Of a DNA stretch of 64,000 nt, positions 44,479-51,191 are shown one piece after another (within the stretch, counting starts at the first letter, position 1; each line of letters starts with the position of its first letter). The translations under genes were made by a program, and so were the position numbers. Below the pieces are notes generated by a model. That model made no database searches and was not told the origin of the DNA. It saw only the letters and a list, made by a program, of their open reading frames with translations. Origin of the DNA: Bernardetia sp. (GTDB lineage: Bacteria > Bacteroidota > Bacteroidia > Cytophagales > Bernardetiaceae); the NCBI GenBank assembly GCA_020630575.1, contig JAHDBD010000001.1, forward strand, positions 124,001 through 188,000, in the 5' to 3' direction.

Positions 44479-46329
44479 CTATTTAGCTAACTCTTCCAAA
44501 ACTACCTGTTTGAGTTTGTCTATATTCCCACCAAAACCAGTTTCACGATGTACAATTTCGCCTTTTTTATTGATAATTACAGTTGTTGGGATTGAACCTA
44601 TATCATAACTTTTAGATAATTCTTTTGCATTTGGTAAGACTGAAAAACCAAACATTTCTTTCTGTTGTTGGGCAAAACGAGTTACCTCAATTGGTGTATT
44701 TGTAGTAGCAGCTAAGAAAACAATACCTTTCGTTTGTGTTTCTCTCCAAAATTCGTTAAAGAGTGGAATTTCTTTTATACAAGGAAGACAATAGTTTGCC
44801 CAAAAATTAATAACGACCACTTTTCCTTTTAACTCTGAAAGTTTTATTTCGTTAGTGTTCATATCTTTTATAGAAAAATCAGAAGCTAATTGTTTCGATT
44901 CTTTGGCTTTATTTTCTACTCTCTTTTTTAAATCTTGAGCGTAACTTTTAAAGTTTGTTTCTTGCTCTGTTTGATTAAAAAGAATCTTTATTGAATCCAA
45001 AACACTTTCTTCTTCTGTTTCTTGATAAAGATTTTCGTAGGTTTTTAAGGCTTCATTGTTTTGACTTAGCTCTTTTTGTAGAAAAACTTTTCTCTCTAGC
45101 TGAAATCTACGAAAATTAACAGAATATTTATCAGTGTTTTTATTTGCAAAATACAAAGAGCTGTCAATATGAGAAAGAGCTGATTCAAAATCTCCTTCTT
45201 CTATTTCTACATGCCCTAGCCAATAATAACCATTTGCAATAGAATAATTAATATTTTTACCAAAAAGATATTTTCTTTCTTTCTTATACAATGGCGCATC
45301 GTGCAACCATTTACCTTTTTTTGCCTCTTGTAAAAGAAAAGTTGCCCATTTTTTTGCGCTCGCATAATCTTCTTGATGAAGGTATGCCTCTATATTTGCA
45401 ATTATGGAGTAGTCTAATGTAGAATCCATATATTTAAAGTTATAATTATTATTTGCTATAATATCTTCATCTTTATAATAACCCTTTAGTATCCATTTAT
45501 TGTTAGAGTACTCTCCATGCATGTTTGCTCTTCCGAAAGGGGATTGAGGGTGATGTTTTCCTATTGCCTGAATAAATGACTCCATAAAAAAAACATCATC
45601 GCTGTCATTATGCAAACTATAACTATAGTTGTAAATTGAAAAAGCCTTATTTAGGAAATTAGAATTGGGGTAACTACTAAGTAGTTTGTAAAGAATTTCT
45701 TTAGATTTATCAAACTGTTTATTGTAAGCATATAAAATAGATAAGGCTGCCAAATCACTTACTTCTTTAGTATTTACCTTTTTCTGTACCTTTTTTAATG
45801 ATTCTTTTACTTCTGTTTTAAATAGTGTATCACTTACTCGTCCAAAAGAGTAGCCTTCTGCTAGATAAGAAATATAATTGGCATATGCCATCAAATTAGT
45901 TGGATAATTAGTAAGTTCTTTTTGTAAGGCTTCGTTATTCATACGAGATTCGTATGCATTCTGATACGCATTTTTAGCTATTTTTCCATCTTTATTATGT
46001 ACTCTTCTAATATAAGTAGTAGCACTCCTATCATCCATACTATAAAAGTAACCCATAAGCAGAGCTGCATCCTTAGGGATAGTAAATTTTGCTTTTCCAT
46101 TTATAATAGGAACATATCCTTTAATGTAGCTCATGTCTTGTGTAAATACATCGACATGAAAGAATAAAGAATCTGAATCTATATCAATACTATTTTTTAT
46201 AGCATAGACTGTTACCTCTTCGCTTTCATGAATTATTTGAGGAAGAATGTTATCACTTTCTTTATATTCAATTGTACGGAATGATAAAATACTGAGGCTT
46301 AAAAATAAAATTAGATTTATTAATTTCAT
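44479..46329 (-). CDS. TPR/TlpA-like thioredoxin-domain protein, second of a pair
   Basis: The protein is 616 residues with a signal peptide (INLILFLSLSILSFRTI). An N-terminal beta-rich region and an alpha-helical tetratricopeptide-like middle precede a C-terminal TlpA/AhpC-like thioredoxin domain: FSIKDMNTNEIKLSELKG, then CLPC (residues 514-517) in FWANYCLPCIKEIP and the cis-Pro in IPTTVII. It should exchange disulfides on periplasmic substrates. It closely resembles the upstream gene at 46496-48334 and lies downstream of the double-glycine peptide gene, so peptide thiols are candidate substrates. Confidence 0.87.
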   Translation of the reverse strand: MKLINLILFLSLSILSFRTIEYKESDNILPQIIHESEEVTVYAIKNSIDIDSDSLFFHVDVFTQDMSYIKGYVPIINGKAKFTIPKDAALLMGYFYSMDDRSATTYIRRVHNKDGKIAKNAYQNAYESRMNNEALQKELTNYPTNLMAYANYISYLAEGYSFGRVSDTLFKTEVKESLKKVQKKVNTKEVSDLAALSILYAYNKQFDKSKEILYKLLSSYPNSNFLNKAFSIYNYSYSLHNDSDDVFFMESFIQAIGKHHPQSPFGRANMHGEYSNNKWILKGYYKDEDIIANNNYNFKYMDSTLDYSIIANIEAYLHQEDYASAKKWATFLLQEAKKGKWLHDAPLYKKERKYLFGKNINYSIANGYYWLGHVEIEEGDFESALSHIDSSLYFANKNTDKYSVNFRRFQLERKVFLQKELSQNNEALKTYENLYQETEEESVLDSIKILFNQTEQETNFKSYAQDLKKRVENKAKESKQLASDFSIKDMNTNEIKLSELKGKVVVINFWANYCLPCIKEIPLFNEFWRETQTKGIVFLAATTNTPIEVTRFAQQQKEMFGFSVLPNAKELSKSYDIGSIPTTVIINKKGEIVHRETGFGGNIDKLKQVVLEELAK

Positions 46330-46361
46330 GATTTTTATAGACTAGACTAGGATAAGATAAT

Positions 46362-46394
46362 GGTTTGCAAAAATAAAATTTACAAACCATTTTG
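46362..46394 (-). terminator. Hairpin between the two TlpA-like genes
   Basis: AATGGTTTG (46362-46370) pairs with CAAACCATT (46386-46394), a perfect 9-bp stem with a 15-base loop. The flanks have no long T run, so it may be a weak terminator or processing site. Confidence 0.5.
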
Positions 46395-46495
46395 AAGTTT
46401 ATTTTCAATAAAAATACTGAGAACTACAGAGAATTTAAAAACTAGTGCTGCAATTTGAAAATTTTATTTGTTATTATATTTTTCATTGTGATAAA

Positions 46496-48334
46496 TTACT
46501 TATTCAATTCTTCCAAAACTACCTGTTTGAGTTTGTCTATATTTCCACTAAAACCACTTTCTTGGTATATAATTTCGCTTTTTTTATTGATAACAATAGT
46601 TGTAGGAACTAGATTTACATCATACACATCAGCTAATTCTTTTGCATTTGGAAGAATAGAAAAACTAAACATTTCTTTTTGTCTTTGTGCAAAACGTGTT
46701 ACTTCAAGAGGTGTATTCTTTGTAACAGCTAAAAAAATAATATCATCTGTTTGAGTTTCCCTCCATATTTTATTGAGATATGGAATTTCCTTTGCACACG
46801 GAAGACAATAGTTTGCCCAAAAATTTAGTACGACTACTCGCCCTTTCCACTCTGAAAGTTTTATTTCATAACCAGACATATCTTTGATAGAAAAATCAGC
46901 AGCTAGCTCTTTTGTTTCTTGGTTTTTGTTTTCTACTCTTTCTTTTAGATTTTTAGCATAACTTTCAAACCCTTTTTCTTGTTCTTTTTCTTTGAAAATA
47001 ACTTTTATAGAATCCAAAACTCTGTCGTCTTTTGTTTCTTGATAGAGAGTTTCGTAGGTTTTTAGGGCTTCGTTTGACTGGTTTATTTTTCTTTGTATAG
47101 AGGCTTTATAGTTAAGTGCATCAGTAATAGGATTTTTGATAAACCTATTTTGTCTATCTGTTTGATAAGATAGATATGCACTATCTAAGTAGTTAATAGC
47201 TTGATTATAATATTTTGCTGCTTCACTTACTTCTGCTAGAAGATGGTAGGCAAAACCAATTTGACTTCCTGTTTCTACAAAACCATTTCGTCCTCCTATT
47301 TTCATTGGACTATGTATCTTCCATTGTTCTGTTTTAGCTTCTTTTAAAATATTTAATGCCTCATGTTTAGCCTCTAAAATACTTTTATTATCTAGTTTTA
47401 TTTTTGCTCTTATGAAATATTTACGGTATTCTAAATTAGTAGAATCTATATTTTTTAAATAGAATTGAGCATTTTTCGCTATTATTTTTGGCGAATAATA
47501 TTTCATATTTATAGGCGCAAGACTATTCTTTATTCCAATAAGGGTATGAGGAATATTCTTTGCAATATATCTGTCGAAATTGTCAGAAAATATTTCTGTT
47601 TTCTCTTTGTCATCTCTTTTTAAAAAGCTATTGACACGATATGAACTGTATGCTCTATCTAAAAAACTACTGTTGGGATGTTTTTTCATCATACTTAAGA
47701 GCAAGTCTTCAGAAGCCTCATACTCTTGACTGAAAGCATACAATGAAACTAATGCATACATGTCATCAGCTTTTTCCAAATTTGCTTTTTGTTTGATTAT
47801 TTTGAGGTACTCAGATATTTCTTGACGCAATACTGTATCACTTTTTTGTCCTAAAAATACTTTTTCTGATGAATGCTCTAAATACTTTACGTAAGTAACT
47901 AGATTATTTGGGTAGTTTGTAAGTTCTTTTTCCATCATTTGCTCATCCATCCACAGTTGATAAGCATTTATTACCTCTTTATTTGTAACATTATCATAAA
48001 CTCTTCTTACATAATCTCTTTTTTCTCTACCTTCCATATTGTAAAACCCTCCCAACAATATAGCTGCTCCATGTGGAACAGTTATAGAAGCTTTTCCATC
48101 TTCTAACCTTACATAACCTTTACGAATACTCAAATCTTGCATATAAAATTTGATATCAAAAAATAACGTATCAGTATTTATTTTTATACTGTCATCTATA
48201 GCATAAATTGTTATAGTCTCTCCTTCATATATTTTTTCAGGTAGAATTTGATCTATTTCTCTTAATTTATCTTCTTTTTGAGAACATGAAACCAAGGTAA
48301 ATAAGGTTAGAACCGTGAAGAATTTAATGACCAT
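46496..48334 (-). CDS. TPR/TlpA-like thioredoxin-domain lipoprotein, first of a pair
   Basis: A 612-residue protein with a lipoprotein signal (FTLVSC, Cys17). The architecture matches its downstream paralogue: an N-terminal beta-rich region (EGETITIYAIDDSIKINTDT), helical repeats, and a C-terminal thioredoxin domain with CLPC at residues 510-513 (NFWANYCLPCAKEIP) and cis-Pro in VPTTIV. The last ~100 residues are the most alike between the two. It lies directly downstream of the peptide precursor gene, across a hairpin, and probably forms one transcription unit with it. Confidence 0.88.
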   Translation of the reverse strand: MVIKFFTVLTLFTLVSCSQKEDKLREIDQILPEKIYEGETITIYAIDDSIKINTDTLFFDIKFYMQDLSIRKGYVRLEDGKASITVPHGAAILLGGFYNMEGREKRDYVRRVYDNVTNKEVINAYQLWMDEQMMEKELTNYPNNLVTYVKYLEHSSEKVFLGQKSDTVLRQEISEYLKIIKQKANLEKADDMYALVSLYAFSQEYEASEDLLLSMMKKHPNSSFLDRAYSSYRVNSFLKRDDKEKTEIFSDNFDRYIAKNIPHTLIGIKNSLAPINMKYYSPKIIAKNAQFYLKNIDSTNLEYRKYFIRAKIKLDNKSILEAKHEALNILKEAKTEQWKIHSPMKIGGRNGFVETGSQIGFAYHLLAEVSEAAKYYNQAINYLDSAYLSYQTDRQNRFIKNPITDALNYKASIQRKINQSNEALKTYETLYQETKDDRVLDSIKVIFKEKEQEKGFESYAKNLKERVENKNQETKELAADFSIKDMSGYEIKLSEWKGRVVVLNFWANYCLPCAKEIPYLNKIWRETQTDDIIFLAVTKNTPLEVTRFAQRQKEMFSFSILPNAKELADVYDVNLVPTTIVINKKSEIIYQESGFSGNIDKLKQVVLEELNK

Positions 48335-48361
48335 AATTTTATTTATTCTTAATTAAAAAGT

Positions 48362-48392
48362 AAGTACACAAAGTAATAAGCTCTGTGTACTT
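48362..48392 (-). terminator. Hairpin between the peptide precursor and the first TlpA gene
   Basis: AAGTACACA (48362-48370) and TGTGTACTT (48384-48392) form a perfect 9-bp stem; on the minus strand ACTTTTTAATT follows. It may partly end transcription so that the precursor is made in excess over the TlpA proteins, as is common after RiPP precursor genes. Confidence 0.6.
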
Positions 48393-48415
48393 GTTTTATC
48401 AAATTATATATATGC

Positions 48416-48616
48416 TTAATAAGAGTATACAGGATCATCATCAGAGCATCCATCATAGCCTCCTAGCATAGTGAATGCCTCTATTGCATCTGACTGACCA
48501 CTGTAAGTAGTAGTAACACCACTCCTAGTCTAACAAGTCCAAGTACCACCATTTACTTTCTTAGCTTTTTCAGAAGAAATAGCAAACTTACCAAATCTTT
48601 TTTTAAGATTTTTCAT
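48416..48616 (-). pseudogene. Double-glycine leader peptide (RiPP-like precursor) with in-frame TAG
   Basis: From the ATG at 48616 the frame is MKNLKKRFGKFAISSEKAKK then VNGG (residues 21-24), T25-W26-T27-C28, a TAG (48530-48532, codon 29), and then 37 further codons free of stops to the TAA at 48416. The first part is a basic leader with a GG cleavage site, as in Bacteroidota double-glycine precursor peptides; the second is rich in Ser, Thr, Gly and Asp with Cys57 (GGYDGCSDDDPVYSY). The region is richer in G+C than its surroundings, supporting coding. Either a 28-residue peptide is made, the codon is read through, or the gene is decayed. Confidence 0.75.
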
Positions 48617-48697
48617 AGAACATAAAAATTTAATGAATTTAAAAATAATTTATTATCTAACCTGCCTTTCAGAAGATTTACTAAGTAAGTTTGATAG

Positions 48698-48732
48698 CAA
48701 AAATATCAAAAAAAAAAAGGTGTAGTTCCAAA
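48698..48732 (-). promoter_or_regulatory. Candidate promoter of the peptide precursor
   Basis: On the minus strand TTTG at 48732-48729 and TATTTTTG at 48705-48698 are 23 bases apart, close to the Bacteroidota -33/-7 spacing. Transcription would begin near 48690, leaving a leader of about 75 bases. The rest of the 358-base divergent region is A/T rich with no other strong signal. Confidence 0.45.
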
Positions 48733-48930
48733 TCCAAATAACCTTATTTTCTAAAATAATTTTTAATTGGTTGATAATGAGTTGTTTATATTTTAAAGTA
48801 ATTTCATTATTAGACTATATAGCTCTATACTTATTAATCAATTCCGATAAAAATAAACATGATTTATAGTTCATAATCTTATTTTTTATAAGCAATGATA
48901 GTTATTTTTCTCTATTCCAAATTTTTACAT

Positions 48931-48938
48931 TACTTTTG
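48931..48938 (+). promoter_or_regulatory. Candidate -7 element of the ABC exporter gene
   Basis: TACTTTTG fits TAnnTTTG, 37 bases before the ATG at 48975. No TTG is well placed upstream. Confidence 0.45.
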
Positions 48939-48974
48939 TTATAAAATAAACCATATTAATATAGAAAGTACCAA

Positions 48975-51191
48975 ATGGCTAAATTTCCTCATATCAAGCA
49001 ACGTGACCAAATGGATTGTGGTCCTACGTGTTTGAAGATGATTACAAAATATTACGGAAAAAATTTCTCACTACCTTTTTTGAGAGAAAACTGTTATATA
49101 GGCAAACAAGGCGTTTCTCTTTTAGGAATTGCTACAGCAGCCGAAAATATTGGACTTCGTACACTTGCTGTTCAGATAGATATTGAAACCCTCATAGAAG
49201 AAAAACCTGTTCCTTTTATAGCACACTGGAATCAAAATCATTTTGTTGTAGTCTATAAAATCACAAATAAAAAAGTTTTTGTAGCAGATCCAGCTTCGCA
49301 GCTTTTAGAATATACACACCAAGAATTTAAGAAAGCGTGGATTCAAGCCAATGGAGCAGCAAAAGAAGGGCAATTACAAGGAGAAGAAACTGGAATTGCA
49401 TTATTGATAGAAACTACACCAGACTTTGATAATCAAGATGATGTAGAAGAAAGCAAGGCTTCTTTTGGGTATTTATTAAATTATTTAAAGCCTTATAAAG
49501 CAATTATTTTTCAATTGTTTCTAGGACTTTTGGGAGCTACCCTACTTTCGCTTTTCTTGCCTTTACTTACTCAAGCCTTAGTAGATACAGGAATTCAGCA
49601 AAAAAATCTTTCCTTTGTTTATGTTGTTTTGATAGCTCAACTTTTATTTTTTCTATCCAAAAACTTTATTAATCTTATCAGAAGTTGGATTTTGTTGCAA
49701 TTGTCTGTGCGCCTGAATATACAAATTGTGTCCGATTTTTTAGCTAAAATGATACGATTACCTTTACCATTTTTTGAATCTAAAAATCTAGGAGATATTT
49801 TGCAACGTATGCAAGATAATCAGCGAATTGAACAGTTTTTGAGCGGTACATTACTAGATTTTATCTTCTCTTTAGCGAGTTTATTCTCTGTTGGTATACT
49901 AGTAGTAATTTATAGTCCTGTTATATTTGCACTTTTTTTAGCAGGAAGTGCTTTATATATCACTTGGATTTTGCTTTTTTTGAAGAAAAGAAAAGTTTTA
50001 GATAATAAACGTTTTGCACTTTCTTCTTCCACTCAAAGTAACGAAGTAGAACTCGTACAAGGAATGGCAGAAATTAAGTTTAATAATTTTGAGAAAGAAA
50101 AACGATGGGAATGGGAACGCTTGCAGGTAAAAAGAGCTAAGTTATCGATGCAAAGTTTACGTCTTAGTCAGTTTCAACAGTATGGAGGTGGTTTTATCAA
50201 TGAACTCAAAAATATCATTATTACTTTTTGGGCTGCTTATGAAGTAATTCAAGGAAGTATGACACTAGGAATGATGATGGCAGTACAGCAAGTTTTGGGG
50301 CAAATGGAAGTTCCTTTGCTTCAATCAGTTAATTTTGTGCAACAAGGACAAGATGCAAAATTGAGCTTGGAACGTTTGGCAGAAATTCATGAACAAAAAG
50401 ATGAAGATTCAGAAGATTTTCTTATTAAAGAGCTGCCAGAAGGTGAAAACTCAAGAGATATTTATCTTAAAAATGTAACATTCCGATACGGAACGCCACA
50501 TAGCCAACCAGCCATAGACGATTTGACACTTCATATTCCGACAGGAAAAACGACAGCTATTGTAGGAGAAAGTGGAAGTGGAAAAACGACACTTTTGAAA
50601 CTATTATTAAAATATTATATTCCTCAAAGTGGACAAATTACCGTTGGTTCATTGCCTCTGACTGCACTCAGTAGCTCAGTTTGGCGTGCTACTATTGGTT
50701 CTGTTATGCAAGAAGGCTTTATTTTTTCGGAAAGTATAGCCAAAAATATTGCTTTAGGTGATGAGAGACCCACACAAAAACACCTTATAGAAGCCACACA
50801 GACAGCAAATATTTATGAGCATATACAAACTTTGCCTTTAGGTTTTCATACCAAAATAGGTCAGTCAGGTGAAGGGGTAAGTCAAGGACAAAAGCAACGT
50901 TTACTCATTGCTCGGGCTGTATATAAAGACCCCGATTATTTATTTTTTGATGAAGCTACTTCTGCATTAGATGCTAAAAATGAAAAGGTAATTTCAGAAA
51001 ATTTACAACGCTTTGGAAAGTCTAAAACACAAATTATTATAGCGCATAGACTAAGCACTGTAAAAAATGCAGACCAAATTATATTTTTAGAAAAAGGAAA
51101 AATTAGGGAGCAAGGAACACACGAAGAATTAGTAGAGAAAAGAGGAATGTATTTTAATCTTGTTAAAAATCAGTTGGAGTTAGCAGGATAA
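48975..51191 (+). CDS. Peptidase-containing ABC exporter (C39 bacteriocin-type, PCAT)
   Basis: The 738-residue protein joins a C39 cysteine peptidase to an ABC exporter half. The peptidase at residues 1-140 has Gln9, Cys15 (QMDCGPTCL), His89 (NQNHFVVV) and Asp105 (VADPAS), the full catalytic set. Six transmembrane helices follow at about 175-450. The ATPase has GESGSGKTTLL near residue 531, signature VSQGQKQR in place of LSGGQ, FFDEATSALD and IIAHRLST. Such exporters cut precursors after a GG motif while exporting the core; the divergently encoded VNGG peptide is a matching substrate. Confidence 0.93.
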   Translation: MAKFPHIKQRDQMDCGPTCLKMITKYYGKNFSLPFLRENCYIGKQGVSLLGIATAAENIGLRTLAVQIDIETLIEEKPVPFIAHWNQNHFVVVYKITNKKVFVADPASQLLEYTHQEFKKAWIQANGAAKEGQLQGEETGIALLIETTPDFDNQDDVEESKASFGYLLNYLKPYKAIIFQLFLGLLGATLLSLFLPLLTQALVDTGIQQKNLSFVYVVLIAQLLFFLSKNFINLIRSWILLQLSVRLNIQIVSDFLAKMIRLPLPFFESKNLGDILQRMQDNQRIEQFLSGTLLDFIFSLASLFSVGILVVIYSPVIFALFLAGSALYITWILLFLKKRKVLDNKRFALSSSTQSNEVELVQGMAEIKFNNFEKEKRWEWERLQVKRAKLSMQSLRLSQFQQYGGGFINELKNIIITFWAAYEVIQGSMTLGMMMAVQQVLGQMEVPLLQSVNFVQQGQDAKLSLERLAEIHEQKDEDSEDFLIKELPEGENSRDIYLKNVTFRYGTPHSQPAIDDLTLHIPTGKTTAIVGESGSGKTTLLKLLLKYYIPQSGQITVGSLPLTALSSSVWRATIGSVMQEGFIFSESIAKNIALGDERPTQKHLIEATQTANIYEHIQTLPLGFHTKIGQSGEGVSQGQKQRLLIARAVYKDPDYLFFDEATSALDAKNEKVISENLQRFGKSKTQIIIAHRLSTVKNADQIIFLEKGKIREQGTHEELVEKRGMYFNLVKNQLELAG

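What the first reader, a model, noticed from the sequence alone, without database searches (positions are those of the whole stretch)
44479..51191. Double-glycine peptide locus with C39 exporter and tandem TlpA-like redox proteins
Seen: a short minus-strand gene (48416-48616) with a basic leader ending VNGG, divergent from an ABC exporter with an intact C39 catalytic set (Cys15, His89, Asp105), and followed on its own strand by two paralogous thioredoxin-domain proteins, both with CLPC. Known: C39 exporters cut leaders after GG. Inferred: the locus makes and exports a small peptide whose cysteine(s) are oxidised or kept reduced by the TlpA-like pair in the periplasm. No modification enzyme (rSAM, LanB/C, YcaO) is present in the window, so a disulfide or unmodified peptide is more likely. 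This is the best candidate for an undescribed system here.
Basis: partly seen in the sequence, partly recalled or inferred. Interest (0 to 1): 0.85.

Follow-up and report, generated by a model that had tools for sequence, protein, structure and literature searches.

The report
Swappable disulfide-peptide and thioredoxin-partner cassette
This bacterium (a Bernardetia-like Bacteroidota) carries a small secreted-peptide gene next to its exporter and followed by two thioredoxin-type helper proteins; here the peptide gene is interrupted by a stop codon, but in relatives it is intact, and even strains of one species swap the peptide together with the recognition half of its helper, which suggests a rapidly varying family of disulfide-bonded peptides with matched helpers.

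Summary
The locus is real, with one correction. The exporter is an intact C39 ABC transporter, and the two downstream proteins are 612-616 aa TPR-like/TlpA fusions. The leader (MKNLKKRFGKFAISSEKAKKVNGG) belongs to a family of about nine in this genome. The window's own precursor is broken: an in-frame TAG falls four residues after GG, where intact relatives have Trp. The locus is one allele of a variable system found across the Bernardetia-type genus, in which a conserved exporter (90-99% identity in five genomes) sits beside exchangeable units of GG peptide plus partner. In a same-species genome the flanks are 92-99% identical, but DNA similarity stops at leader codon 14 and resumes at partner residue ~422: what differs is the core peptide plus the partner's N-domain, between two conserved arms. 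Partner N-domain class tends to follow peptide class. Of 24 Cys-containing cores, 23 have even Cys counts. A second locus encodes a C39-like (no catalytic Cys)-VKOR-thioredoxin fusion; in other Bacteroidota it has Cys-rich GG peptides within 3 kb at 19 of 20 loci. Best reading: a bacteroidetocin-like disulfide-peptide secretion system with dedicated, swappable redox partners. Peptide activity and disulfides are inferred, not shown.

The parts
48416..48616 (-). GG-leader precursor gene, interrupted: leader 48545-48616, core remnant 48416-48544, amber codon 48530-48532
   Evidence: translation; paralogs in own genome; intact same-class relatives L073:10038-10223 and L074:11895-12077
46496..48334 (-). 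likely cognate partner: lipoprotein-like signal (LVSCS), beta domain plus TPR-like N-domain (about 1-420), TlpA/ResA-type thioredoxin domain with WANYCLPC (about 477-612)
   Evidence: Pfam, alignment A1, AlphaFold model mean pLDDT 65, Foldseek TPR matches, domain divergence
44479..46329 (-). second partner of the same family without a peptide gene of its own; no lipobox Cys; closest to L073:14662-16509
   Evidence: N-domain 79% identical to the G005 copy that also lacks its own peptide
48975..51191 (+). C39 peptidase ABC exporter (738 aa), catalytic Cys15/His89/Asp105 in place
   Evidence: Pfam; 97, 99, 92, 90% identical in G005, G003, G001, G004 and 81% in G006
48576..48974 (.). conserved upstream arm: divergent intergenic region plus first leader codons (about 92% identical in the same-species genome)
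   Evidence: blastn
47072..48575 (-). variable segment: second half of leader, core peptide, partner N-domain (no blastn similarity to the same-species genome at this place)
46506..47071 (-). conserved downstream arm: linker and thioredoxin-domain coding region of the partner (89.6% to the same-species genome)

Best explanation
The locus is one allele of a variable cassette in a secretion system for small disulfide-bonded peptides. A 24-residue double-glycine leader directs the precursor to the C39 ABC exporter, which cuts after GG and exports the core (inferred from the family). The core's cysteines are paired in the cell envelope (inferred from even Cys counts). The general oxidant is probably the C39-like-VKOR-thioredoxin protein encoded elsewhere; its C39 domain has lost the catalytic Cys and may only dock leaders (inferred). 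The TPR-TlpA protein beside each peptide is a dedicated redox partner: its N-domain recognises its own peptide, while its common thioredoxin domain does disulfide exchange and must fit a shared electron partner, so that domain stays conserved and is homogenised between paralogs (variable/conserved split shown; function inferred). Strains exchange core plus N-domain by recombination between the conserved upstream-and-leader region and the conserved thioredoxin region (boundaries shown; process inferred). In this strain the precursor has an amber codon, so this copy is probably inactive, or the stop is an assembly error. The product is most likely bacteriocin-like.
For: Leader family of nine places in own genome. 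Exporter conserved 90-99% in five genomes with an adjacent GG-leader gene in 7 of 7 genus genomes. Same-species genome: similarity ends at leader codon 14 and resumes at partner residue 422; comparable boundaries (leader codons about 9-29, partner residues about 356-440) in other between-class pairs, while same-class pairs G5A-G6 and G5B-G3 align over most of the partner. Partner N-domain about 30% identical between classes versus 85-93% in the thioredoxin region (67-71% for the second-partner type); within G005, dS 0.33-0.38 in the thioredoxin region versus 1.4-1.65 in the N-domain. Nearest-neighbour concordance of peptide and N-domain 6 of 8, exact p 0.004. 23 of 24 Cys-containing cores have even Cys. 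C39-like-VKOR-Trx with peptide neighbours at 19 of 20 loci, 0.265 versus 0.023 GG-Cys peptides per kb. N-domain plus thioredoxin proteins next to GG peptides in other families. Bacteroidetocin precedent.
Against: No peptide, disulfide, activity or interaction has been shown. The window copy is interrupted. A Pearson Mantel test of peptide versus N-domain similarity was only suggestive (p 0.076) and the rank correlation was about zero. The second TlpA has no peptide. The C39-VKOR-Trx gene is on another contig, so its link to this exporter rests on paralogous leaders and on G005, where both lie in one cluster. TlpA-like proteins can also act as reductants. Flavobacteria-like loci have the VKOR fusion and peptides mostly without an adjacent large partner. 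Only one same-species genome was available.
Confidence: 0.6

Rival explanations
1. The partner is an immunity or self-protection lipoprotein: its N-domain binds and neutralises the cognate peptide toxin, and the thioredoxin domain reduces its disulfides. Orphan copies are retained immunity genes.
For: Peptide-matched N-domain, lipoprotein-like signals in most copies, orphan or degraded copies without a peptide in the window, G005 and G001, strain-level exchange typical of toxin-immunity pairs.
Against: In bacteroidetocins the thiol oxidoreductase gave no protection and was needed for toxin activity. Large thioredoxin-domain partners recur beside GG peptides in other families, more easily read as maturation.
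Confidence: 0.25
2. The peptides are signals rather than toxins, and the variable cassette sets specificity groups, in the manner of agr or comQXP loci.
For: Exchange of peptide plus matched partner half between conserved arms within a species resembles those loci (general knowledge).
Against: No variable receptor or histidine kinase adjoins the cassettes. Many different peptides per genome fit an arsenal better.
Confidence: 0.12
3. The window precursor is functional: TAG is read through, or the four-residue product TWTC is itself the secreted molecule.
For: The frame stays open after TAG and keeps same-class motifs right after it (TR-S/A-G) and near its end (DGC).
Against: Both intact relatives have Trp at that codon. 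TAG ends 11 of 46 window ORFs. TWTC would leave one unpaired Cys.
Confidence: 0.07
4. Ordinary neighbours: a housekeeping TlpA pair that happens to lie next to a peptide gene.
For: TlpA-like proteins are common in Bacteroidota; eleven places in this genome match at E up to 0.001.
Against: This TPR-TlpA family occurs only at these loci in the genus and in none of four other genomes of the family. Class matching and shared exchange boundaries.
Confidence: 0.03

Closest known systems
Bacteroidetocins (proposed class IIf bacteriocins of Bacteroidales), PMC6671954
   Same: Double-glycine leader, even Cys, C39 ABC exporter, and a thiol oxidoreductase gene next to the precursor that is needed for full activity
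   Different: Four-gene region with a 5-TM protein and one conserved peptide family; here leaders of 24 rather than 15 residues, unrelated cores, large two-part TPR-TlpA partners, several cassettes per genome and strain-level exchange
Class IIa accessory disulfide proteins (PedC/BrcD type; named in PMC13289728)
   Same: Thioredoxin-fold helper for a GG-leader disulfide peptide
   Different: Here a roughly 612-residue lipoprotein-like partner whose N-domain varies with the peptide
ResA/TlpA/StoA thiol-disulfide oxidoreductases
   Same: C-terminal domain with CxxC; best PDB matches are ResA; NCBIfam ResA matches below its cut-off
   Different: N-terminal beta plus TPR-like domain; linked to GG peptides, not to cytochrome or spore genes
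VKOR-thioredoxin fusions (VKOR-DsbA, as in PMC12453122)
   Same: VKOR membrane domain plus thioredoxin domain, each with CxxC
   Different: An extra N-terminal C39-like domain without catalytic Cys and consistent linkage to GG-leader peptides
agr and comQXP specificity loci (general knowledge)
   Same: Peptide plus matched interacting half exchanged between conserved flanks
   Different: Partner is a thioredoxin protein, not a sensor kinase; function may be antagonism

Membership tests
C39-exported double-glycine peptides | basic leader ending in GG, shared by paralogs | tested here: met
C39-exported double-glycine peptides | adjacent C39 ABC exporter with catalytic Cys-His-Asp | tested here: met
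C39-exported double-glycine peptides | intact precursor | tested here: not met
   in-frame TAG in the window copy; intact in relatives
C39-exported double-glycine peptides | cleaved and secreted | not testable with these tools
   needs mass spectrometry
Bacteroidetocin | four-gene region with 5-TM protein, peptide, thiol oxidoreductase, C39 exporter | tested here: not met
   peptide, redox protein and exporter present; no further gene of the unit that would match the 5-TM protein
Bacteroidetocin | 15-residue leader and 42-residue, 4-Cys mature peptide | tested here: not met
   24-residue leader; the same-class intact cores have 2 Cys
TIGR04149 rSAM-modified GG peptides | leader over the NCBIfam cut-off | tested here: not met
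   window peptide no match; best paralog 13.3 bits against 25
TlpA/ResA-like thioredoxin proteins | AhpC-TSA/Redoxin domain over cut-off with CxxC | tested here: met
TlpA/ResA-like thioredoxin proteins | NCBIfam ResA over its cut-off | tested here: not met
   93 bits against cut-off 170
Matched peptide-partner specificity cassette | partner class follows peptide class | tested here: inconclusive
   nearest-neighbour test p 0.004; Mantel Pearson p 0.076

The most novel reading that the evidence does not exclude
A polymorphic secretion system in which a peptide and the peptide-recognising half of a two-part thioredoxin lipoprotein are exchanged together between conserved DNA arms (upstream region with leader start, and thioredoxin domain), served by a C39-like-VKOR-thioredoxin enzyme that uses a dead C39 domain to dock leaders: a leader-guided disulfide-forming system for secreted peptides across Bacteroidota.
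Probability: 0.35. Interest if true: 0.82.

Novelty: new variant of a known kind. Interest (0 to 1): 0.62.

Why it matters
Bacteroides are said to lack general disulfide machinery (PMC6671954), so a peptide system that brings its own redox partners would explain how Bacteroidota make disulfide peptides. If the partner's N-domain sets specificity, the swap offers a natural set of matched peptide-partner pairs for testing recognition. The C39-like-VKOR-Trx marker gives a practical handle for finding many uncharacterised Cys-rich peptides in Bacteroidota. Nine literature searches of the held open-access library found no description of this fusion or of these cassettes, but that library is incomplete.

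Tried and rejected
A chance GG match was rejected. TAG reassignment was rejected: 11 of 46 window ORFs end in TAG. An rSAM-modified TIGR04149 peptide was rejected. A housekeeping TlpA was rejected because the family is restricted to these loci in the genus. A Mantel test of peptide versus N-domain similarity did not reach significance (p 0.076), probably because class-c partners are very divergent; a nearest-neighbour test was used in addition and both are reported. A first regular expression for cores was too strict (2 hits) and was replaced. A first pairing script failed, and so did a first annotation script. The AlphaFold model had only three sequences and pLDDT 65; its Foldseek matches are generic TPR superhelices with low TM-scores, so nothing beyond TPR-like is claimed. 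A genome-contig scan gave only two further loci.
Full report
Observation. The four reported genes are present. The exporter has all three expected domains and its Cys15, His89 and Asp105 can be read directly from the sequence; Cys15 and His89 are invariant in an alignment that includes a 29%-identical outgroup. The two minus-strand proteins are 44% identical and both end in a TlpA/ResA-type thioredoxin domain with WANYCLPC. The peptide gene is not intact: four codons after the GG there is an in-frame TAG (48530-48532), after which the frame continues to a TAA at 48416. Two intact relatives of the same class (G005, G006) have Trp at that codon. TAG is an ordinary stop here. The simplest readings are a recent nonsense mutation or an assembly error. 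In the 19 kb compared with a same-species genome the other genes have matching or nearly matching lengths, which makes general poor quality unlikely but does not exclude a single error.

The leader is a real family. Searching the own genome with the 28 residues up to the stop gave nine places, with paralogs down to E 7e-9. They share a leader of about 24 residues and then differ completely, mostly with several cysteines. Across the genus, 25 distinct intact cores were collected; 24 contain Cys, and 23 of those have an even number (2, 4, 6 or 8). That is what fully paired cysteines would give, with the caution that some cores are related.

Genus comparison. The held set has seven genomes of this genus, one of them the same species. 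Records recovered from public contigs are named Flexibacter sp. and uncultured Cytophagales, which suggests Bernardetia (inference). The exporter is 97, 99, 92 and 90% identical in G005, G003, G001 and G004, and 81% in G006. In all seven genomes a GG-leader gene lies next to it, but in G006 that gene ends one residue after GG. Six of seven genomes have the TPR-TlpA family, against none of four genomes from other genera of the same family. G005 carries three peptide-partner units in a row, one partner without a peptide, a further peptide, and then the C39-like-VKOR-Trx and HlyD-like genes, which joins the two loci that are separate in the window's genome.

Exchange. Against same-species G003 the window is 92-99% identical on both sides. 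Similarity on the peptide side ends inside the leader at codon 14 and resumes at partner residue 422. In between, G003 has a different core (IIRPGDPGTNSTLCC...) and a partner N-domain only 31% identical to the window's. The window has two partners where G003 has one. Comparisons among six units give boundaries at leader codons about 9-29 and partner residues about 356-440 between most pairs, while same-class pairs (G5A-G6, G5B-G3) align from about residue 35 to the end. Two units within G005 are 98.4% identical over 373 nt up to leader codon 15 and then differ. The thioredoxin regions of three G005 partners have dS 0.33-0.38 among themselves, against 1.4-1.65 in their N-domains, and mostly 0.58-1.05 against other genomes; selection on the protein alone would not lower dS in this way, so sequence exchange or conversion is likely. 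The second peptide locus (C94) is also an island: own and G003 DNA are 96-97% identical on both sides, but the peptide-bearing interior differs in length and content.

Matching. Peptide nearest neighbour and partner N-domain nearest neighbour agree in 6 of 8 units (exact permutation p 0.004). A Mantel test was weaker (Pearson p 0.076, rank correlation about zero), so matching is supported but not secure.

The wider system. The C94 locus encodes a protein with a C39-like domain, a VKOR domain and a thioredoxin domain. The C39-like part starts after the catalytic Cys position, and none of 28 such proteins has the catalytic motif, while all have a CxxC in the VKOR domain and all but one truncated copy have a second in the thioredoxin domain. 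The protein was found in 21 of 296 Bacteroidota genomes at E 1e-15 or better. At 19 of 20 such loci a Cys-containing GG peptide lies within 3 kb, 0.265 per kb against 0.023 per kb farther away in the same stretches. C39 exporters and HlyD-like genes are frequent neighbours. At several loci outside the Flavobacteria-like family, the gene beside the peptide encodes a large protein with a thioredoxin domain. So the pairing of GG peptide and thioredoxin partner is general, while the particular TPR-TlpA family is confined to this genus in what was searched. Exporter relatives elsewhere in the order are usually followed by an HlyD-like gene and only sometimes have a GG peptide close by, so the exporter family alone does not identify the system.

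Mechanism. Shown: gene order, conservation, variable and conserved halves, boundaries, Cys parity, co-occurrence. Inferred: export and cleavage (from C39 exporters in general), disulfides, recognition by the N-domain, leader docking by the dead C39 domain, and antagonism as purpose. Bacteroidetocins supply the nearest experimental precedent: GG leader, four Cys, C39 exporter, and a thiol oxidoreductase whose deletion attenuates activity and which gives no immunity (PMC6671954). This favours a maturation role over immunity, but immunity remains a serious rival because of orphan partners and matched exchange.

Verdict. A real and interesting system, a new variant of known GG-leader disulfide-peptide systems. 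The specific copy in the window is probably inactive.

Noticed in passing
L084:8329-8427 (G006): The exporter-adjacent leader gene ends one residue after GG (SKISGGV, then stop), with no recognisable core after it: a second exporter-adjacent precursor that has lost its core.
   Followed up: partly
L032:9599-13226 (G000 contig C44): A second C39 ABC exporter with an HlyD-like gene and a 39-residue GG-leader ORF without Cys (MKKVQKKSDIKNLEAKKLIAQDLKTIKGGAKETFNRNGK), apparently a different peptide system.
   Followed up: no
L077:11000-14425 (G001): Several broken TPR-TlpA copies (frame shifts and stops) beside peptide genes, suggesting repeated gain and decay of partner genes.
   Followed up: partly
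L026:9119-9304, L027:897-1106, L030:9356-9830, L031:9085-9339 (G000): Solitary GG-leader Cys peptides away from any exporter or partner, presumably served in trans.
   Followed up: no
L130:4541-4933: A PPIC-type prolyl isomerase gene between two GG-leader peptide genes near a VKOR fusion: another possible folding helper.
   Followed up: no
L074:5082-5540: ORF translating a short DNA repeat (LRITNYGLRITNYELRITNY), probably an intergenic repeat and not a protein.
   Followed up: no
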